64,000 nt of DNA from Physcomitrium patens (taxonomy: Eukaryota > Streptophyta > Bryopsida > Funariales > Funariaceae): contig NC_037255.1 in assembly GCF_000002425.4 (NCBI RefSeq), positions 13,483,626 through 13,547,625 on the forward strand, written 5' to 3'. The position numbers and the translations under genes were made by a program. Numbering within the stretch: position 1 is the first letter of the stretch; each line of letters begins with the position of its first letter. The notes beneath the pieces were generated by a model. The model saw only the letters and a list, made by a program, of their open reading frames with translations. It was not told where the DNA came from and ran no database searches. Shown one piece after another: positions 9,821 through 53,870 of this stretch.

Positions 9821-9952
9821 ATTAATGTCATAGACACAAAATACAGACTTGAAATCTAACAAGAAGTTCAAGAAGAAGTGGCAGAACTAGATTAAACAGA
9901 TGAGTACAAGAACAACACCAGAAAGGTGAGCTAGAACTCCAAGAGATGTGTT

Positions 9953-9982
9953 GTCGAGACTGAAGAACCCTTCAGCCTCGAC
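9953..9982 (-). repeat. Hairpin at the LTR start site (solo copy)
   Basis: Arms 9953-9965 and 9970-9982 form a 13-bp stem with one mismatch in DNA, which becomes a G-U wobble when the LTR sense strand is RNA. The 4-nt loop differs from those of both LTRs of the complete element, while the stem is unchanged. Confidence 0.8.
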
Positions 9983-10097
9983 TCCTATATATACTACTGA
10001 ATAGGAAGCTTCTCGAGCTACTTCCGCTAACTAGGACGCTTCTCCAACAACTTCTACTAATTAGGAAACTTCTCGAGCAACTTCCTAGAATCTATCA

Positions 10098-10181
10098 GAA
10101 TATTCTAGAATCTTCTAAGAATATTCTAGAACCTTCTAAGAGAATCTTTAGGGAATATTCTAAGAATATTCTAGAACCTTC
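10098..10181 (-). promoter_or_regulatory. Heat-shock-element arrays in solo LTR
   Basis: Three perfect runs of four alternating GAA/TTC modules with 2-nt spacing: 10098-10115, 10119-10136 and 10164-10181, with further partial arrays near 10210-10240. This is the consensus for trimeric heat-shock factors (inverted nGAAn units). They lie upstream of the LTR TATA element (near 9986-9993, minus strand). Confidence 0.75.
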
Positions 10182-10263
10182 TAAAGGAATCTTTAGAGAA
10201 TCTTTAGAGAATGTTCTAGAAGAATATTCGAAGAATCTTCCAATGTATGTCCATGACAATTAA

Positions 10264-26359: not shown

Positions 26360-26403
26360 TAAAATATTAGGGACATAGTCCTTAGACCTTTCTAGAGACA
26401 AGT

Positions 26404-26542
26404 TTCTAGAACCTTCTAGAAAGAAGTCTCTAGAAACTTCCAGAAGATTCCTTGAATATTCTCTTAGAATATTCTTCAAAGATTCCATAAAATATTCTTT
26501 AAAGATTCCCTAAAGATTCCCTTTAAAGGTTCTAGAAGATTC
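26404..26542 (+). promoter_or_regulatory. Heat-shock-element cluster in the LTR U3
   Basis: Perfect 4-module arrays of alternating TTC/GAA at 26404-26421 (TTCTAGAACCTTCTAGAA) and 26433-26450 (GAA..TTC..GAA..TTC). Two-module GAATATTC sites lie at 26454-26461 and 26467-26474, and a 3-module array at 26530-26542. The modules have the strict 2-nt spacing that heat-shock-factor trimers require. The cluster lies about 130-270 bp upstream of the TATA box, and the same arrays recur in the 3' LTR (32496-32513, 32525-32542). HSF binding is inferred from the consensus. Confidence 0.8.
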
Positions 26543-26669
26543 TTAGAATATTCTAGTAGATTCTAGGAAGTTACTTGAGAAGCTTCCTAGCTCTTGGGTA
26601 GTTGCTCGAGAAGCTTCACAGTTCTTGGGAAGCTTCTTGATGCGCTTCCTTAGAACCATAGGCCAGTAG

Positions 26670-26712
26670 TATATATAGGAGTCGAGGCTGAAGAGTTCTT
26701 CAGTCTCGACAA
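26670..26712 (+). promoter_or_regulatory. LTR core promoter and inferred transcript 5' end
   Basis: TATATATA is at 26670-26677. The CA dinucleotide at 26701-26702 lies 32 nt from the first T of the TATA box, the usual plant TATA-to-start distance, and fits the pyrimidine-purine start rule. The first 11 nt from there, AGTCTCGACAA (26702-26712), are exactly complementary to 26840-26850 just behind the LTR. The start site is inferred, not measured. Confidence 0.7.
26681..26710 (+). repeat. Hairpin spanning the inferred start site
   Basis: GTCGAGGCTGAAG (26681-26693) and CTTCAGTCTCGAC (26698-26710) form a 13-bp stem with a 4-nt loop AGTT and one G-U wobble in RNA. In the 3' LTR (32761-32790) the loop is AATT, and in the solo LTR GGTT; the stem is the same in all three. 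Confidence 0.85.
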
Positions 26713-26839
26713 CACATCTCTTGGAGTTCTAGCTCACCTTTCTGGTGTTGTTCTTGTACTCATCTGTTTAATCTAGTTCTGCCACTTCTTCTTGAACTTC
26801 TTATTAGATTTCAAGTCTGTATTTTGTGTCTGTGACAGT

Positions 26840-26850
26840 TTGTCGAGACT
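26840..26850 (+). other. Candidate self-priming primer-binding site
   Basis: TTGTCGAGACT starts 2 nt after the 5' LTR end, where a primer-binding site should be. It is the exact reverse complement of the 11 nt at the inferred transcript 5' end (26702-26712). No match to a tRNA 3' end is apparent at this position. In the Tf1/sushi chromovirus group the first 11 nt of the element's own RNA pair with such a site and prime reverse transcription. Confidence 0.7.
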
Positions 26851-26860
26851 ACACTAACTT

Positions 26861-27240
26861 GAGATATCAGAGCTAGTTCTTTCTTAGTAGAGTGTCGATT
26901 ACCCTTCTACTTGAAGGTATATTAGCATTTTTTTAGAGGTTGCGGATTACCCTCCTCTAAACTGATATTTTCTCAATCACAATATCAGAGCTTAGTTCTT
27001 TGAGGCAGAGAGTGGACTACCCCTTTTCTTGGAGATACTTGAGCGTTCTAAGGGTTGCGGATTACCCTCTCTTGGACTGATATTAATTCCTTCTTTTTGT
27101 TTAGCATAGCTAGTAGAAAAGACTTTTAACATCGATTTCAGAGGTTTGCCTTCTTGATAGAGTGCACATTACCCCTCTTCTCGAAAGCATTGAGGCATTT
27201 TTAGAGGTTGCGGATTACCCTCCTCTAAAACTGAAATCGT
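26861..27240 (+). repeat. Three structured leader repeats
   Basis: Three degenerate units, 26864-26968, 26981-27084 and 27133-27239. Each opens with (A)ATATCAG-like and closes with its reverse complement: ATATCAG/CTGATAT in units 1 and 2, CGATTTCAG/CTGAAATCG in unit 3. Each contains the core GGTTGCGGATTACCCTC, and in units 1 and 3 this lies inside a TAGAGG/CCTCTA stem. A weaker second ATTACCC-type motif sits in the 5' half of each unit. Units 1 and 2 begin with TATCAGAGC, which resembles the usual initiator-Met-tRNA binding site. Confidence 0.8.
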
Positions 27241-27384
27241 TTAGTGTTTTTTTTTTTTTTTTTTTTTTTTCTTTTTCTTTTTCTTTTCTCCGAGTAGGTT
27301 TTAGTGACAGGTAGTGCTACAATTTTCTCCAAGAGACTTAGCAATTTCTTCTTCTCTCAAAATTTTTCCATCTATTCTCTAAAT

Positions 27385-28434
27385 ATGAGAGTAGACCAGG
27401 TCATAGACAGTGCATCTCCACAAGTAGACAATAGAGTGGCAACTCTTGCAGATCTTCAAGCTCTTATGAATAGTGTACGAAAGGAGATTGTATTTCTTCG
27501 CAATCCAAGTAAAGAACCTCAAATTGATCTAGTGACCGAAGAAGCTAGACGCGAAATTCATAGCCTACAACAAGAGATTATTCGACTAAGAGAAGCAAGA
27601 CATGTGTCACATACGACCCCTATAGATACTTCAAGGATTAGTACGAAAGAACCAAAAGCGAGTATGCCAGACAAGTTTGACGGAACAAGAGCCAACTTCC
27701 GAGATTTTGTGCAACAAGTACGGCTTTATCTACGCCTATATCCTTCTCGTTATCCGAATGGATTTACCCAGGTTGCTTTCATAGGTACTCTTCTATCAGG
27801 AAATGCTCGCTCTTGGTTTGCTCCACTATTGGAGAAGGATTCTCCAATATTGTACGACCTAGAGGCTTTCATAGAGAGACTTACTGCTGCGTTTGGAGAT
27901 AGCGATCGAGAAAGAGTGGCTGAAAGAAAGATACAAAATCTGCGACAAGGATCACGTTCTGCTGCAATCTATGCTGCAGAATTTCAACAGCTTACATGTG
28001 ATCTTGATTGGAATGATAAGGCGTTCATGACACGATTTCGATATGGACTGAGAGATGATGTCAAGAACTTATTGATCACCATGCCTAAGGCGGATACTTT
28101 AGAAGAACTTATATCTCAGGCAATTATTTGTGACAACCGCCTCTTTGAATTACGACAAGAAAGACGATCACGCTGAAGAAATGATGGAGCATTTGCTACA
28201 TTTTCAAAAGGTCCAGAGAATCACTCCACAGACCCTGAACCCATGCAAATTGATGCGGTACGTTTCAAACCCCTCACAGCTGAGGAAAGGAAGCGACGGT
28301 TTGAACAAAACTTGTGTTTATATTGCGGAGAAGCGGGCCATAAAGCTGTAGATTGTCGGAAGAAACAGAAGCCTCAAACAACAAGACTCAGGAGTACAAG
28401 CATGCAGGAAAACAAGGACGCCCAGCCACAATAG
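27385..28434 (+). pseudogene. Chromovirus gag, one in-frame stop
   Basis: Gag forms the virus-like particle. The first ATG is at 27385 (MRVDQVIDSA...). An N-terminal coiled-coil-like region (EARREIHSLQQEIIRLREA) precedes the capsid-type retrotransposon gag domain (FDGTRANF...GNARSWFAPL...). A TGA at 28174-28176 breaks the frame, which then continues to a zinc knuckle [14 protein letters not shown] (CX2CX4HX4C, about 28312-28353) and ends at TAG 28432-28434. The stop is one C-to-T change from an Arg codon. The pol frame is offset by -1 and overlaps the gag end from 28353. Confidence 0.93.
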
Positions 28435-28439
28435 GGACC

Positions 28440-31400
28440 ATGCGGCTGGACATCTCAACATCCAAAATTAATCAAGGTCCCTTTCTCTCAGCTCAACCTT
28501 CAGATTGTTTTATGGTACCTTTACATCTGGGTATTCAAGAACTACAAGTCGATGCTTTATTAGACTCGGGTGCATCCGCTTGCTTTATAGATGAAGAGTT
28601 TGCCAAGCTTCACAATATTTCTCTTGTAAAGAAACTTAAGCCTGTCCATGTAGAAGTCATAGACGGACGACCATTGTCTTTGGGCAATGTTATCTATGAA
28701 ACTAAACCATTGAAGGTACGTCTTGAAAACCATGAGAGCAATATTGTGTTTAATGTTATCAAGACCCCTTCATGTCCTATCATTTTGGGACTATCTTGGC
28801 TTGATAAATATAATCCATTGATAGATTGGAAGTTGCGGAAAGTGACATTTCCAACAAACTCCTTGAAGGTGGAATCTGCCAAGACAATGTCTAGAAACAA
28901 ATCCTTGTTTATAGGTGCAAGGGCTTTCATGAAGGAAGCCAAGCAAAATACACCTCTTGTCATCTTCGCAACTCCGACTCGAGAAGATGCAACTCCGACT
29001 TTGGTTATTCCAAAGCAGTATGAAGAATTCAAAGATGTCTTTGAAAAGAAGAATGCTGATATGCTGCCAGAGCATCGACCCTATGATTGTGCCATTGAAT
29101 TGCAAGAAAGAGCACAACCACCTTTTGGACCAATCTACAATTTGTCGTAGACGGAGTTGACTGAGTTGTGGAAGTACATTGACGAGAATCTAGCCAAGAA
29201 CTTCATCCGTCATTCGAAGTCGCCAGTTGGGGCACCAATCTTATTTGTGAAGAAGAAGGATGGCTCACTACGGATGTGCGTGGACTATCGAGGTCTCAAC
29301 AAGGTGACAAAAAAGAATCGCTATCCACTGCCTTTGATCTCTGGTCTTCTAGAACAACTTGGGCGTGCAAGGATCTTTACAAAGATTGACCTAAGGGGGG
29401 CTTACAACCTTGTGCAAATTAAGGAAGGAGATGAATGGAAGACAACGTTCTGAACAAGGTATGGCCATTTTGAATACAATGTCATGCCATTTGGTCTTAC
29501 TAATGCTCCAGCGGTCTTTCAGCACATGATGAATGACATCTTTCGAGAGCATCTAGACGATTTTATTGTCATCTATCTAGATGATATTTTGATATTTTCT
29601 AAGAACGAGGAAGAACATGAGAAGCACGTTCGTCTGGTACTCAAAAAACTACGGGAGCGAGGACTCTATGGCAAATTGGAGAAGTGCTTATTTCACCAAA
29701 CTGAGATGGAGTTTTTGGGATTCATCGCGACTACGGAAGGCTTGAAGATGGATCCAAAGAAGGTCGAAGCAATCATGTCTTGGAAAGTTCCGAAGACGGT
29801 TAGGGACGTATAATGTTTTCTTGGATTTGCTAACTACTATCGGATCTTCATCAAGAATTATTCTCAAGTTGCTGCCCCCCTCACTCGGTTAACGTGTAAG
29901 GACAAGCTCGAATGGGGACCTATCGCAGAAAAAGCATTTCAAGATTTGAAGATGGTATTTACTACAGCTCCAATCTTGGTACATCCGGACTTTACAAAGG
30001 CCTTTTATTTGGAGACAAATGCGTCGGATTTTGCTTTGGGAGCTGTACTTTCACAGATGGGCGTAGATGAGAAGCTCCATCCAGTTGCGTTCTATTCTCG
30101 AAAATTCTCTGCTGCTGAGATCAACTATGAGATCCATGATAAGGAACTCCTTGCTATAGTAGATTCTTTCCAAGAGTGGTGCCACTTTCTTGAAGGAACT
30201 GCACATCCAGTGACCGTATATACGGATCACAAGAATTTGGAGTATTTTATGTCGGCTCGGGTTTTGAATCGGCGTCAAGCCCAGTGGAGTATGTCGCTAT
30301 CCAGGTTCGACTTTGTTATTACTTATCGGCCTGGGAAGCAACAAGGGTTGTTTGATGCATTATCAAGGAGATCATATCTCGCGCCAAAGGCTGGAGATGC
30401 AGCATTTGATGAAGAGTGCACGACATTGTTGAAGCCAGAGAAATTTCGGCTCAACGCAGCTATTGTACCAATTGATGCTGACTTCCTCGATCAGGTACGG
30501 GCCGCAACCATTGAAGATTCTCTAGCCCTTGATATCAAGCAACATGCTAGTGATGATAAATTCAAGATGAAAGGAGATCTAGTATATTTCGAAGAGCGGT
30601 TGTATATCCCAAAAGGGCCAACACGACTCCGAGTTCTTCAATCTCGTCATGACTTTCCAACTGCGGGACATTTTGGATTCAATAAGACCTTGGAACTTAT
30701 TTCCCGCGATTTCTGGTGGCCTCAAATGTGGAAGGATGTGAAAGATTTTGTTGTATCTTGTGACATTTGTTCAAGATCCAAAAACCCTCGACATCGGCCT
30801 TCTGGACTTCTACAGCCATTGCCTATTCCGCGCCGACCATGGTCTTCGATTTCCATGGACTTTATTACGGATCTACCACCATCGAATTCATTTGACAGCA
30901 TTTTTGTTGTCGTAGACCGGCTTACAAAGATGGCGCATTTTGTCCCTTGCAAGAAGACATCGTCAAGCAAAGACACAGCAAGACTCTTTCTTGATAATGT
31001 GTATCGATATCATGGTCTACCAGATGATATCGTATCGGATCGAGGAACCCAGTTTGTGTCAAAGTTTTGGAAATCTCTTTTTGAAATATTGAAGGTGGAT
31101 ATCAAGCTTTCTTCGGCATTTCATCCTCAAACGGACGGCCAAACAGAACGGGTGAATCAAGTTTTAGAGCAATATTTACATTGCACCATCAACTATCAAC
31201 AAGATGATTGGGTTGCATATCTACCGCTAGCTGAGTTCGCATATAACAACACCCTTCATGCGTCAACTCAACAAACGCCATTCTTTTCCAATTATGGATA
31301 CCATCCGAAGCTTGACTTATGGAGTTCGTCAACGATTAACAATCCGGCAGCTGAAGGATTGGTGAAGGAGCTTTCGCAGCTTCAAACTACATTGAAGCTT

Positions 31401-31913
31401 CAATTGCAAACTGCCCAAGAATCTTACAAGGCGTCCGCGGATAAATTTCGAAATCAAGCACCTAAATTCACGATTGGAGACAAAGTTTGGCTGCTTCGAC
31501 GAAATATTAAGACCAAGCGGCCATGTGACAAATTGGACTATCGGAGATTGGGACCATTTGTTATCCAGAAGCAGATTAATCCTGTAGCGTATCGTCTGGA
31601 GTTACCAGCTACTATGAAGGTACATCCTGTCTTTCATGTTTCTTTGTTGGAGCCTTATCGAGAATCGTCTTTTCCTGGAAGAGTACAATGTCCACCACCT
31701 AGCATAGAAATAGAGAACCACGAAGAATACGAGGTGGAAAAGGTCCTGGATTCACGGCAAAGACGGGGTAAATTAGAATACTTTGTGCATTGGAGCGGTT
31801 ACAATATTAATGAACGAACATAGGAGCCGGCCGAAAATCTCGCGAATGCGCCACAAAAGGTACAGTAGTTTCATCGACGATATCCTGAGAAACCCAAGCC
31901 GGTTCGACGATAG
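28440..31913 (+). pseudogene. Chromovirus pol (PR-RT-RH-INT-chromodomain), five stops
   Basis: All in one frame, offset -1 from gag; the first ATG (28440) comes 5 nt after the gag stop. Protease active site DSGAS is near 28564. RT has DYRGLNKVT and the catalytic YLDD at 29574-29585. RNase H has DASDFALGAVLSQ and TDHKNLEYF. Integrase has an HHCC zinc finger (about 30640-30780) and DDE core (SMDF about 30853, SDRG about 31036, TDGQTE about 31130), then a GPY-like segment. A C-terminal chromodomain starts EYEVEKVLDSR (about 31725). In-frame stops lie at 29148, 29451, 29811, 31821 and 31866. Each is one transition from the Gln, Arg or Trp codon expected there. The stop at 31821 falls in the chromodomain core. 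Confidence 0.95.
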
Positions 31914-32058
31914 CTTCTTACTAAAGCTTGCTCATCTAGAAAACAGAAAAGAGGAGAGAGCACCACCAAAATCCATAGTTGATGTAGTCATTCTCTCCAA
32001 GATAGCGTAGAACTTTGTTAGTAGCCCAAGTTTGTTCTTATTGTTTTAGCCTTTGAAT

Positions 32059-32406
32059 ATGGATAGCCAAGATACTACACTTGTCATGTCATCTCAAGCA
32101 ACTAGCTCACAAAAACGACCGCGAGATGAAGAACCGCCTGCACCACGACGACGTCGAAGGATTCCGAGCAACAGATCGCTGGTGATTGTATTTGAGGTCG
32201 AGCCTGCCTACAATGGTCAGCCAGAAGGAGTGTTTGTAGGACAATTTCACAATGAAGACACGGAGGTTCATGCTTGGTCAGAAGTTGAAGGCGTGGGCCA
32301 CTACCGTTGGCTTCAAGGACCATTAAATCACTTGCCTCGTGAACAACAATTGGAGTTCATAGTAGAGGTTATGCGACAAATCTTCATTTTCTTGCGTTGG
32401 TATTGA
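32059..32406 (+). CDS. Extra Arg-rich ORF 3' of pol
   Basis: A 115-aa frame from ATG 32059 to TGA 32404-32406, between pol and the polypurine tract. N-terminal third: a Ser/Thr/Gln-rich start, then KRPRDEEPPAPRRRRR, a probable nuclear localisation or nucleic-acid-binding segment. The rest is mixed acidic/hydrophobic (EVEPAYNGQPEGVFVGQF, WSEVEGVGHYRWLQGPL). It has no stop although gag and pol have six. No signal peptide or membrane segment is seen, so it is not envelope-like. No family was recognised. It may be an accessory protein or a captured sequence; chance survival of a 115-codon frame is possible. Confidence 0.5.
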   Translation: MDSQDTTLVMSSQATSSQKRPRDEEPPAPRRRRRIPSNRSLVIVFEVEPAYNGQPEGVFVGQFHNEDTEVHAWSEVEGVGHYRWLQGPLNHLPREQQLEFIVEVMRQIFIFLRWY

Positions 32407-32442
32407 CTGACGATAACATTGCTTCTCGGAGACCTCGAAGCT

Positions 32443-32453
32443 AAAGGAGGAGG
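32443..32453 (+). other. Polypurine tract
   Basis: AAAGGAGGAGG lies immediately before the TG start of the 3' LTR, the expected site for priming plus-strand DNA. Confidence 0.85.
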
Positions 32454-32917
32454 TGATATTAGGGACATAGTCCTTAGACCTTTCTAGAGACAAGTTTCTA
32501 GAACCTTCTAGAAAGAAGTCTCTAGAAACTTCCAGAAGATTCTTTGAATATTCTTTTAGAATATTCTTCAAAGATTCCCTAAAGATTCTTTGAAGATTCC
32601 CTTAGAAGGTTCTAGAAGATTCTTAGAATATTCTAGTAGATTCTAGGAAGTTACTTGAGAAGCTTCCTAGCTCTTGGGTAGTTGCTCGAGAAGCTTCACA
32701 GTTCTTGGGAAGCTTCTTGATGCGCTTCCTTAGAACCATAGGCCAGTAGTATATATAGGAGTCGAGGCTGAAGAATTCTTCAGTCTCGACAACACATCTC
32801 TTGGAGTTCTAGCTCACCTTTCTGGTGTTGTTCTTGTACTCATCTGTTTAATCTAGTTCTGCCACTTCTTCTTGAACTTCTTATTAGATTTCAAGTCTGT
32901 ATTTTGTGTCCGTGACA
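32454..32917 (+). repeat. 3' LTR of the chromovirus
   Basis: 464-bp LTR, TGATATTAGGG...TGTCCGTGACA, followed by the TAAAA target duplication. It carries the same heat-shock-element arrays, TATA box and hairpin as the 5' copy. Visible differences from the 5' LTR are a few transitions and one indel region of about 11 nt. Confidence 0.95.
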
Positions 32918-32922
32918 TAAAA

Positions 32923-50988: not shown

Positions 50989-52622
50989 CTAGTGCCAAGC
51001 ATGCGATGACAATGGACTCGGGGACCCTGGTGAAAAAGATGAGCTCGAGTACAGTTCCGACACAGAAGGAAAAGAGCACTCCGACGATTGATATGTCACA
51101 GTTGATTCTTGCGTACTCTCAAGGCTCGAGCACGACTTCGGACTCAAACCAAATCCAAGCTTAAGGTCGAGTTCCAGTGATCTACCCGCACTGGAGCCCG
51201 AGCAGTCTCTACCGAGCAGTGCATGAGCCTGGTTTTGGCTCAACATCGCGCTCTGCAATAAGACGCCCTTCTTTGGAGGATGGGTCATAAATTCCGAAGT
51301 CCTCACTTCGTCACTGACACGGATGACGCCTTTCGCGCTTGACAATTTAGAACCCTTGCATTCCTTGGAGTAACTTGGGACAGTGCTTCCATACGACCGT
51401 CTTTGGGGTGCAGGGTTGGTCCTCCGCACTGCTTGGGCACGTGATGTCAGTTGAGAGCGACATATAGACAATTGATTACATACAGTACTCTCAATCTTCC
51501 CTCGTAGATCGTCACTGCATGGAGGTGCGAAGTTTGTTTTGGCCTTGGAACCGCGAAGAGCTCGTGCAGCTGAAACATCGTCCACATAGGTAGAAATTAG
51601 TTGGATTCCAGGAAATCTCTCACCGTAAAGAAATGCATCGAGAGTATTGGAGCAATTTGAGTAAGTCCCACGAGTGATTCAGTAATCTCACCACTGTCGT
51701 ACGCTCGTGCAGCATCCTCAGCTGTGTCAAAAGTTCCTAACCAATGCCGACATCTGCCGATCCGATCACGGATCTCAGCAGACCACCGACCCCATGGCCT
51801 TTTCCTCACACCTCTGAACGAACGACCAGTACTAGTGGCCGCTGGGACCTTTGCAGCACTGGATTTACCTAGACTAGGCATCACTCCCGTTGGAGAGACA
51901 TCTAAAGAATGCCTGCAATTCTCAACAGATCCATACAATTGTGGCTGAAACTTCGGCTTCACATCGGCTGACTGCTTCATGAGAATTCTGTCAGGTGTCG
52001 GCCGAAAGTTACTTAGCGCAAATCGCAAGCCATCGGCGGTGAACTGTTTGGGATATTGCGATGTTGGCGACGCCAAACCAAAGTTCCAGCTGTGTGTCGG
52101 CGAGATCTGATTCACCTGTGCTGCAAGCTGATTGTCCCCTTGCCTCGCGGGCGGTGCGAGCCACGAACTGCGCTCCATCGAAAATGCAGACGTAAGCAGT
52201 GCCGAACAATGATCTTGATTAAGATCGCATGTTTCCGGCTTTCCGAATAGGACGGTCTGGCCAACAACTGCAGCAATGCCATCCAGGTCCTGCACCTCCA
52301 CGCTACTATTCGGAGATTCGCAACTTTGAAAGGAAGCAGGGACGGGCGAAACCTCCGTCTCCGATTCACCGTAACCAGCCAGAAAGGAGGTTGGGTTTAA
52401 CTCTCCGAGAATCTCATACAAATACTGGTCTCCAGAAAACCGATGGGAGTAGTCCATGTCTTGCAGAACTGGAATATCGATATTGTCGACTAATAAAAGA
52501 GAACTAGCAGAAGAATTGAAGCCAGAGAAATTGGCTCTCTTCGCTGTGCAGTTGTCAGGTGAGATGCCTCGCCACTTGCGCTTCGCAAGCACGGTACCAC
52601 CCAACATGTCATGTAGTGCCAT
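50989..52622 (-). CDS. AP2/ERF transcription factor with EAR motif
   Basis: Two coding exons on the minus strand: 51692-52622 and 50989-51569 (1512 nt, 503 aa). The intron splits the AP2 domain; junction [10 protein letters not shown] restores a perfect domain, with GT and TTTCAG borders. One AP2 domain (residues ~269-324) has [18 protein letters not shown] and [17 protein letters not shown], the three-strand GCC-box-binding fold, so it is a nuclear DNA-binding protein of the ERF family. [12 protein letters not shown] at ~441-452 contains LxLxL, the EAR motif that recruits TOPLESS-type co-repressors. A repressor role is therefore inferred. The N-terminal 260 residues are Ser-rich and low in recognisable motifs; a basic KRKW patch is near residue 14. 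The [13 protein letters not shown] segment resembles group VIII ERFs, but I cannot name an ortholog. The start is the first ATG after upstream stops. Confidence 0.92.
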
Positions 52623-53870
52623 GATCACTTGACTTCAGCTGATTACAAGTCCAGTTTGTGTAGATAGTCCTTGCAACTTGGGAGCAAAAAGCCCTTCTAC
52701 CACTCAAACTCCACACTCTCAACTTAGTATTCACGCTCCTTCAGTGATCAAAATGACACCGAACTCGTCTGCAGCGAGCCTGAGCTTGAGATGATGTCAG
52801 TTCTGTAGTTCCGCAGCCTAGAGATACTCTTGTACCACGCAGAATATTATGAACTCTTCTTGTAATACTCAAATTGCGCTGATCAGCTTCCAATTCAGCA
52901 ATCTCCAGGCAACAGTTGACAGAGACGCTGCTGAGGGTGGGGAATCCAAAGGGCGATGACTGCAAGAATGGACTCCCAATACATACACCATCCAGAGGTC
53001 ACCGACTTCCCTCAGATGTTGCGCTCATGACCGATGTGATCACCTCTACAGATGACAAAACAGCCACACCGCAAGGAACGTAGCGAAACCCGGCTACCGC
53101 AAATCAGCGCAACTTCGAGACGCTGTTGGCAGTGGCACCTACACCGACTGGAACGTCCTAGGAAAGAGCCAATAGTGGTCACACATGCGACCGGAGCTGC
53201 ACGTAAGCTCCGCACAAGCGCTGCAGCGGAGCAGTGTGCGTCCAGGTACGTGAACCTGTTGTTGGTTCGGACAGCCACACGAGCGGGCGTGGAGGAGGAG
53301 AAGACAGACACAGTAACCACATCACTCCTCAGGAGTGAGCCTGGAGACCCTAATGGCACCGAGACTAAGGGCACAGTGCTTAAAACATAATGCCCGCACA
53401 GTTTTTGTACTACACTTCGTCACTCAGCTCAACCTTGTATATGCAGTTGCTTGTGCACAGCTCTCTCTCTCTCGCTCTAAATGTCGCTCCCTCTCCACCC
53501 AAGTTATACAACGAAGTGTGTTGAAGTTACTGTTCACAGCTTGTCTTTCTCCACTCAACTCCCCAGCTACCTTTGGAGAGAGAGATGGAAACGATTGCGT
53601 AGCTCATCCAATTCAAGTTGGTTTGCAAGTAGGCATCGCTACAGTTGCTACAAACTAGCTAGGCAATGGGTTGAGTGGTCTTGGGTGCATCAGCCAGGAT
53701 GAAGCAGGGCCAGTGCTACCTTGTAGGGCACCTCGTAGAAGACGCTACATCAGGTTTTCACCATTTAAAAGGGTGTTATTGAGTGCTTGTGGATTTATCT
53801 GCACCTTGTCACAAGAATTTCTGGCGTGCTTGCTCATTCCTTTGTATGAGCACTCTAGCCTCCAATTTGA
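52623..53870 (-). promoter_or_regulatory. Leader/promoter region of the AP2/ERF gene
   Basis: GC-richer sequence directly upstream of the AP2/ERF start. Both strands contain open frames over 53012-53390 (about 112-120 codons, antiparallel), none with a recognisable domain. A long 5' leader on the minus strand is the simplest reading; no core promoter element stands out. Confidence 0.4.

What the first reader, a model, noticed from the sequence alone, without database searches (positions are those of the whole stretch)
26702..26850. Chromovirus with a Tf1/sushi-like self-priming signature
The 11 nt at the predicted transcript 5' end (AGTCTCGACAA, 26702-26712; 32 nt from the start of TATATATA, preceded by C for a CA start) are an exact reverse complement of TTGTCGAGACT at 26840-26850, 2 nt after the 5' LTR, where the primer-binding site belongs. 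Fungal Tf1 and the related sushi group are known to prime reverse transcription with the first 11 nt of their own RNA paired to such a site; the length and both positions agree here. Plant LTR elements normally use tRNA primers, so a self-primed chromovirus in a plant would be a notable extension. The start-site sequence is also kept in the solo LTR at 9.8 kb.
Basis: partly seen in the sequence, partly recalled or inferred. Interest (0 to 1): 0.88.

Follow-up and report, generated by a model that had tools for sequence, protein, structure and literature searches.

The report
Moss retrotransposon that primes itself
This is a moss jumping gene whose RNA most likely folds back so that its own first 11 letters start its copying into DNA; such self-priming was already predicted for moss elements, but here the matching sites are seen to change together between related elements, along with an unexpected third matching site just in front of the RNA start.

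Summary
In detail: AGTCTCGACAA (26702-26712), 32 nt after the start of TATATATA, is the exact reverse complement of TTGTCGAGACT (26840-26850), 2 nt after the 5' LTR (position-bound shuffles: 2 of 40,000). The element (26365-32917) is a decayed gag-pol chromovirus on the fungal/vertebrate (Tf1/sushi) side of a tree; the host is a moss, probably Physcomitrium patens (inferred). Self-priming of moss and club-moss Tcn1 chromoviruses was already predicted (Neumann 2019), so that extension is not new. Added here: 1,638 such pairs in the host genome (control 0); in 35 copies chosen by pol, primer exact 35/35 and PBS 33/35, while flanks depart 8-9%; a second family in the same genome and mis-binned contigs have other 11-mers, each matched by its own PBS (77/77 Watson-Crick cells, 5 distinct pairs). 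One copy (L001, 5' LTR) breaks the rule. A third site just upstream of the start covaries too and forms a U3/R hairpin possible only in the 3' copy of R; one element (L004) lacks it. I suggest that it masks that copy so that only the 5' end primes. No RNA end or cDNA was observed.

The parts
26365..32917 (+). LTR chromovirus, whole element; target duplication TAAAA at 26360-26364 and 32918-32922
   Evidence: LTR alignment, termini, Pfam domains
26365..26837 (+). 5' LTR, lacking the first three bases (TGA) of the 3' LTR
   Evidence: 95.8% identical to the 3' LTR over 474 columns; start and end read
26670..26677 (+). TATATATA, likely TATA box
   Evidence: invariant in 36 copies
26681..26693 (+). 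U3 arm of the U3/R hairpin, pairs with 26698-26710 (one G-U pair)
26698..26710 (+). 3' arm of the U3/R hairpin; its last 9 nt are primer nt 1-9
26702..26712 (+). self-primer: predicted first 11 nt of the RNA (start of R)
   Evidence: the transcript start itself is inferred
26838..26839 (+). 2-nt spacer GT between LTR and PBS
   Evidence: spacer of 2 also in L003, L004, L005, L006, L012 and family B
26840..26850 (+). primer-binding site, reverse complement of the primer
27304..28176 (+). gag ORF
   Evidence: Retrotrans_gag 1.9e-14, DUF4939, Ty3_capsid
28344..31823 (+). pol, in one frame interrupted by in-frame stops (open stretches 28344-29147, 29151-29450, 29454-29810, 29814-31820): protease, RNase H, integrase, partial chromodomain
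32059..32406 (+). short extra ORF (115 codons and stop) between pol and the 3' LTR, function unknown
32443..32453 (+). polypurine tract AAAGGAGGAGG
32454..32917 (+). 3' LTR; primer copy at 32782-32792
9826..10258 (-). solo LTR of a related copy with the same primer, target duplication TTAAT

Best explanation
A moss Ty3/gypsy chromovirus of the Tf1/sushi-like group that starts reverse transcription with its own RNA. Step 1 (inferred from TATA): transcription starts at 26702. Step 2 (complementarity shown; pairing in RNA inferred): the first 11 nt pair with the PBS at 26840-26850. Step 3 (inferred from what is known of Tf1): the element's RNase H cuts after nt 11 and the freed 11-mer primes minus-strand DNA. 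Step 4 (recalled from retroviruses): plus-strand synthesis copies the primer into the new PBS, so the PBS is a record of the primer used; this explains why primer and PBS change together between elements. Added hypothesis, rated separately in the section on the most novel reading: a hairpin across U3/R, which the 5' RNA end cannot form because it lacks U3, hides the 3' copy of the 11-mer.
For: Exact 11-nt match at the right place (2 of 40,000 position-bound shuffles). 1,638 pairs in the host genome, reversed control 0. In 35 copies chosen by pol, primer 35/35 and PBS 33/35 exact; departure 0 and 0.5% against 8.9% in the rest of R-U5 and 8.3% in the leader. L003 keeps both 11-mers although R-U5 agrees at 98 of 125 and the leader at 12 of 40 positions. 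Other elements have other 11-mers with matching PBS, TATA about 32 nt before and spacer 2: 5 of 69 contig loci on +, 0 of 69 on -; family B of the same genome 9 of 10. 77 of 77 cells Watson-Crick over 7 elements, 8 of 11 positions variable. No TGG in 26838-26870, so no ordinary tRNA site. Tree and AU test place it with fungal and vertebrate elements.
Against: No RNA 5' end, cDNA or primer junction was seen. L001's 5' LTR does not match its PBS. Two of 35 pol-chosen copies have one PBS mismatch, and five of 19 usable singleton sites have a one-base mismatch in a partner. Tf1's three-duplex 'pretzel' is not clear in the window family: the upstream duplex is matched by 299 of 300 shuffles; a downstream one is better (5 of 300) but is not kept in L003 (217 of 300). 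Half-tRNA priming was not tested: no tRNA gene was available for comparison (one search found none in the window).
Confidence: 0.9

Rival explanations
1. A tRNA or half-tRNA primes reverse transcription, and the 11-mer pairing serves another RNA role, such as packaging, dimerisation or translation control.
For: Seed-plant chromoviruses mostly use tRNA primers (PMC6317226, passages). The Tf1 'pretzel' is not clear in the window family.
Against: No TGG in the first 33 nt after the LTR. The conserved block after the LTR is exactly the 11-mer complement and changes with R between elements, which a tRNA site would not do. Half-tRNA sites were not tested.
Confidence: 0.06
2. The 11-mer belongs to a palindromic promoter element around the start site, bound as DNA, and the copy after the LTR is a second protein-binding site.
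For: The primer is the 3' half of a dyad across the start site in the window's three LTRs.
Against: The sequence of the dyad differs between groups while its pairing is kept, with G-U and A-U exchanged. PBS spacing of 2 nt from the LTR end is kept. L004 has matching primer and PBS but no dyad.
Confidence: 0.03
3. Chance or artefact.
For: Matches of at least 11 nt somewhere in the LTR arise in 93 of 20,000 shuffles and 184 of 5,000 random stretches.
Against: Position-bound shuffles 2 of 40,000; 1,638 genomic pairs, control 0; other elements with other matched 11-mers.
Confidence: 0.01

Closest known systems
Tcn1 chromoviruses of mosses and club-mosses (Neumann 2019, PMC6317226; Novikova 2010, PMC2864245; passages seen)
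   Same: Moss host, chromodomain, relation to fungal and vertebrate elements, predicted self-priming in place of a tRNA site, mostly 5-bp target duplications.
   Different: No named Tcn1 sequence was at hand, so identity with a described family is not shown. Those papers' passages report prediction only; one (Novikova) found neither tRNA nor self-priming in a Selaginella element. The U3/R hairpin is not mentioned in the passages seen.
Tf1 of Schizosaccharomyces pombe and the Tf1/sushi group (PMC10085805, PMC4600332, passages seen; Levin's papers only as references)
   Same: Self-primer at the predicted RNA 5' end complementary to a site just after a 5' LTR ending in CA; chromodomain; same side of the tree as fungal and vertebrate elements. 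The 11-nt length in Tf1 is recalled.
   Different: The three-duplex 'pretzel' is not clearly present in the window family. Priming is demonstrated in Tf1 and not here.
RLG1 of Physcomitrium patens (PMC7466625, passages seen)
   Same: Abundant gypsy family with a chromodomain in a moss genome of similar size.
   Different: Not compared by sequence; the name is an inference. Family B could equally be RLG1.
TAR-lineage Ty1/copia elements (Houba, Osr-1)
   Same: Also predicted to self-prime in plants (PMC6317226, passages).
   Different: Ty1/copia superfamily, not chromoviruses.

Membership tests
Tf1/sushi group | Position in the tree with fungal and vertebrate chromoviruses | tested here: met
   45-row tree, split 100/100, 13-row clade 100/99; tree joining the window clade with plant chromoviruses rejected, p-AU 0.0001, group named after seeing the tree
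Tf1/sushi group | Chromodomain at the end of integrase | tested here: met
   Pfam Chromo 28.1 bits, cut-off 25.1, profile positions 1-32 of 53, cut by an in-frame stop
Tf1/sushi group | Self-primer in R complementary to the site just after the 5' LTR | tested here: met
Tf1/sushi group | Self-primer is the actual RNA 5' end | not testable with these tools
   only TATA spacing of 32 nt
Tf1/sushi group | Three-duplex 'pretzel' of the 5' RNA | tested here: inconclusive
   window: upstream duplex 299 of 300 shuffles as good, downstream 5 of 300; L003: 291 and 217 of 300; upstream duplex better in L004, L005, L006, L012 (17, 21, 6, 2 of 300) and family B (21 of 300)
Tf1/sushi group | RNase H cut after nt 11 of the RNA | not testable with these tools
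   needs cDNA junctions
Tcn1 clade of plant chromoviruses | Groups with Cryptococcus Tcn1 and named moss Tcn1 elements | not tested
   no named Tcn1 sequence was at hand; a Tremellales protein (P0076) fell elsewhere, but its clade is unknown
Tcn1 clade of plant chromoviruses | Group I chromodomain with aromatic cage | not tested
   chromodomain of this copy is cut by a stop
tRNA-primed plant chromoviruses | TGG-starting site 0-5 nt after the 5' LTR | tested here: not met
   no TGG in 26838-26870

The most novel reading that the evidence does not exclude
Self-primed retrotransposons have a problem that tRNA-primed ones do not: the primer sequence occurs at both ends of the RNA. In these moss elements and several relatives a U3 arm complementary to the primer folds the 3' copy into a hairpin at least as stable as the PBS duplex, so that only the 5' end can pair with the PBS, be cut and prime. 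Primer, PBS and U3 arm evolve as a three-way unit; the PBS may follow R by copying, but the U3 arm is not explained by copying and so suggests selection.
Probability: 0.35. Interest if true: 0.75.

Novelty: new variant of a known kind. Interest (0 to 1): 0.55.

Why it matters
In the passages I saw, self-priming in land plants rests on sequence prediction. Compensated changes across families, two of them in one moss genome, are stronger evidence, and a moss is an accessible laboratory plant, so the mechanism can be tested outside yeast. If the U3/R hairpin is an RNA mask, it answers how a self-primed element avoids cutting and priming at its 3' end. If the Trichormus-bin contigs are fern DNA, the host range of these elements reaches beyond mosses and club-mosses.

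Tried and rejected
Chance was rejected by position-bound shuffles and family counts. A loose search for 11-nt complements in the 69 contig loci without a TATA rule did not discriminate (32 of 69 on +, 25 of 69 on -, 19 to 21 of 69 in five shuffles) and was not used. LTR-pair detection in those contigs gave few credible LTRs. L030 (9-nt match) and L033 (14-nt match, spacer 3, no TATA found, 7-nt arm) were looked at and left out of the tables. Two scans of viral contigs found no relative. Counts of compensated against uncompensated CpG changes and of family B genome-wide were asked for and never answered. The script printed 34 exact pairs; one is an empty row (L176), so the count is 33. The segment called 'U3 arm' is 26682-26694, one base off the arm given in parts.

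Rows dropped before counts: L001's 5' LTR from the primer/PBS table (its pair is broken); L004, L001's 5' LTR, L033, the window's 3' LTR and the solo LTR from the stem table; five of 40 fetched copies without a recognisable U5 in the stretch; one 11-base region.

The names Physcomitrium patens and RLG1 are inferences from genome size, contig sizes and moss relatives of a neighbour gene; no tool named the genome.

Full report
Observation. The match ends at 11 nt on both sides. TATATATA starts 32 nt upstream; the PBS starts 2 nt after the LTR's final CA. Complements of at least 11 nt somewhere in this AT-rich LTR are not very rare (93 of 20,000 shuffles; 184 of 5,000 random stretches), but at these positions 2 of 40,000 shuffles reach 11 nt.

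The element. LTRs 26365-26837 and 32454-32917, 95.8% alike, target duplication TAAAA, polypurine tract AAAGGAGGAGG. Pfam gives gag, aspartyl protease, RNase H, integrase and part of a chromodomain. A database relative aligns across 28962-31910 in one frame at 88%, and in-frame stops interrupt that frame, so this copy is decayed. A 45-row tree puts plant and algal rows and some contig rows on one side and fungal, vertebrate and moss rows on the other at 100/100, the window among the latter in a 13-row clade at 100/99 that holds the chytrid Powellomyces. Holding the window clade together with plant chromoviruses costs 252.66 log units, p-AU 0.0001; I named that group after seeing the tree.

Host. 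The best-scoring named relative of the neighbouring AP2/ERF protein is from the moss Ceratodon (44%); an unnamed protein is 99% identical. The assembly has 470,438,890 bases in 101 contigs; contig lengths that I saw run from 30.2 Mb (C1) to 11.2 Mb (C25). I infer Physcomitrium patens and that the family may be RLG1, described as the most abundant transposable element there, with a chromodomain (PMC7466625, passages). No tool named the genome.

Prior knowledge. Neumann 2019 (PMC6317226; passages) predicted self-priming for most Tcn1 chromoviruses of mosses and club-mosses from complements of at least 10 bp starting 0-5 bp after the LTR. Novikova 2010 (PMC2864245; passages) found neither tRNA nor self-priming in a Selaginella element and no Tcn1 clones in the ferns sampled. 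Levin's Tf1 papers were seen only as references. My ten paper searches (one search found nothing) listed no title or abstract start that speaks of a U3/R hairpin complementary to a self-primer; I read passages of seven papers on retrotransposons and of one on Azolla, no whole text, and no supplement.

Family test inside the genome. The 11-mer occurs 3,629 + 3,648 times on the two strands, against 47 + 38 for the reversed control. The pair with 112-142 nt between occurs at 1,638 places, control 0; the pattern is its own reverse complement, so both strands give the same count. To avoid choosing by the 11-mers I searched with the window's RNase H-integrase ORF: 70 copies scored of 50,744 candidates, 95-100% identical. 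Of the 69 other copies I fetched the 5' region of the 40 best-scoring; 35 had a recognisable U5 in the stretch, 5 did not (L168, L176, L179, L184, L186). Primer exact 35/35, PBS exact 33/35 (L172 and L175 differ by one base each). Mean departure from the majority letter over these 35 and the window: primer 0, PBS 0.5%, rest of R-U5 8.9%, leader 8.3%. A separate set of 20 copies was chosen because both 11-mers are exact and says nothing on conservation of the pair. Of 19 usable singleton sites, five had a partner changed by one base (L101, L105, L107, L115 in the PBS, L113 in the primer); the other 14 showed no PBS next to the primer.

Paired changes between elements. A scan of genome contigs gave 69 loci, which I take for eukaryotic elements mis-binned in bacterial assemblies. 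The strict scan (TATA 30-34 nt before, 11 exact, PBS 0-5 nt after CA, 90-250 nt apart) hits 5 of 69 on + and 0 of 69 on -: L003, the window's near relative, with the same 11-mers although R-U5 agrees at 98 of 125 and the leader at 12 of 40 positions; and L004, L005, L006 and L012 from one Trichormus bin, with three other 11-mers. L012 differs from L005 and L006 by C to T in the primer and G to A in the PBS. A search of the moss genome with L004's pol found copies at 58-60% identity (36 scored of 59,423 candidates), mostly listed with an open frame of 1,187 aa. Of ten whose 5' region I fetched, nine (family B) have ACTCTTGTCAA and TTGACAAGAGT with spacer GA and TATATATA starting 31 nt before; L193 showed no such arrangement. 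B differs from the window's family A at 3 of 11 positions, all three compensated. Over 7 elements 77 of 77 cells are Watson-Crick, 8 of 11 positions vary, and of 120 re-dealings of the 5 distinct pairs only one, the real one, gives full pairing. Against: L001's 5' LTR reads ATTCTGAACAA with PBS TTGTTCACCTC, while its 3' LTR reads AAGGCGAACAA; the contig may be chimeric or old. It was not in the table of 7.

Why they covary. In retroviruses the PBS is rebuilt by copying the primer (recalled). If R's first 11 nt prime, each round copies R into the PBS, so a change in R reaches the PBS without a second mutation. On this view the sharp 11-nt limit and the matched changes record the primer actually used.

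The third site. In the window's three LTRs an arm just upstream of the start pairs with primer nt 1-9; in the 5' LTR the stem has 13 pairs, one of them G-U, -22.5 kcal/mol, and 0 of 300 shuffles fold as well. The stem recurs in L003, L005, L006, L012 (0 of 300 each), L001's 3' LTR and family B (0 of 500 for L188). It is absent in L004 (162 of 300) and L001's 5' LTR (58 of 300), and weak in L033 (64 of 2,000 for the arm). In ten sequences chosen because they have the stem, 115 of 120 cells are standard pairs and 0 of 50,000 re-dealings of arms reach that. Two family A copies (L104, L105) change the inner stem, outside the primer, on both sides. G-U and A-U replace each other. The ten rows form about three independent groups, so the cell count overstates independence, and choosing rows with a stem inflates the percentage.

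Reading of the third site. RNA that starts at R lacks U3, so the hairpin can form only at the RNA's 3' end (or in DNA). It is about as stable as, or more stable than, the PBS duplex (-14.5 to -22.7 against -14.1 to -16.2 kcal/mol in five elements; family B -19.7 against -14.4; L004 -1.3 against -14.0). Predicted mean openness of the primer in those five is 0.27-0.64 in 5'-end RNA and 0.16-0.18 with U3 present. The hairpin covers nt 1-9 of R and leaves the rest for strand transfer. I therefore propose a mask of the 3' copy (probability 0.35); a promoter dyad is the main rival for the hairpin.

Pretzel. Tf1's three-duplex structure (PMC10085805, passages) is not clear in the window family: upstream duplex matched by 299 of 300 shuffles (L003: 291), downstream by 5 of 300 (L003: 217). 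The upstream duplex is better than most shuffles in L004, L005, L006, L012 (17, 21, 6, 2 of 300) and family B (21 of 300).

Verdict. A real self-priming signature in a lineage where it was already predicted. The new parts, as far as my searches show, are the covariation across families and the U3/R hairpin. The mechanistic steps remain unobserved.

Noticed in passing
L001, L002, L004, L005, L006, L012: Relatives of the moss element, about 60% identical in pol, on contigs of a Trichormus bin (ERR2144891; Trichormus is the Azolla cyanobiont). L019 of the same bin groups with seed-plant chromoviruses, which fits fern DNA. Novikova 2010 found no Tcn1 in ferns; a fungal source is not excluded, since a chytrid protein lies in the same clade.
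   Followed up: partly
L001-L069: 69 contigs of bacterial and archaeal genome records encode relatives of a eukaryotic retrotransposon pol, apparently contamination or mis-binning.
   Followed up: no
window 32059-32406: Short ORF with a basic stretch between pol and the 3' LTR; no family search was made.
   Followed up: no
window 9826-10258: The solo LTR (minus strand) is diverged in upstream U3 but has 3 mismatches in the last 174 nt to the 5' LTR, from just before TATA on: a mosaic with a break near U3/R, like that described for fission yeast elements (PMC10085805, passage).
   Followed up: no
window 26365: The 5' LTR lacks the first three bases of the 3' LTR, yet the 5-bp target duplication abuts it.
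   Followed up: no
window 26881-27228: The leader between PBS and gag holds diverged direct repeats containing GGTTGCGGATTACCCTC.
   Followed up: no
G000 C1 and other contigs: The 11-mer AGTCTCGACAA occurs about 7,300 times in 470 Mb; two related high-copy families with different primers share one genome.
   Followed up: partly
window 50989-52628 (minus): AP2/ERF transcription factor gene in at least two open stretches; nearest named relative is in the moss Ceratodon.
   Followed up: partly
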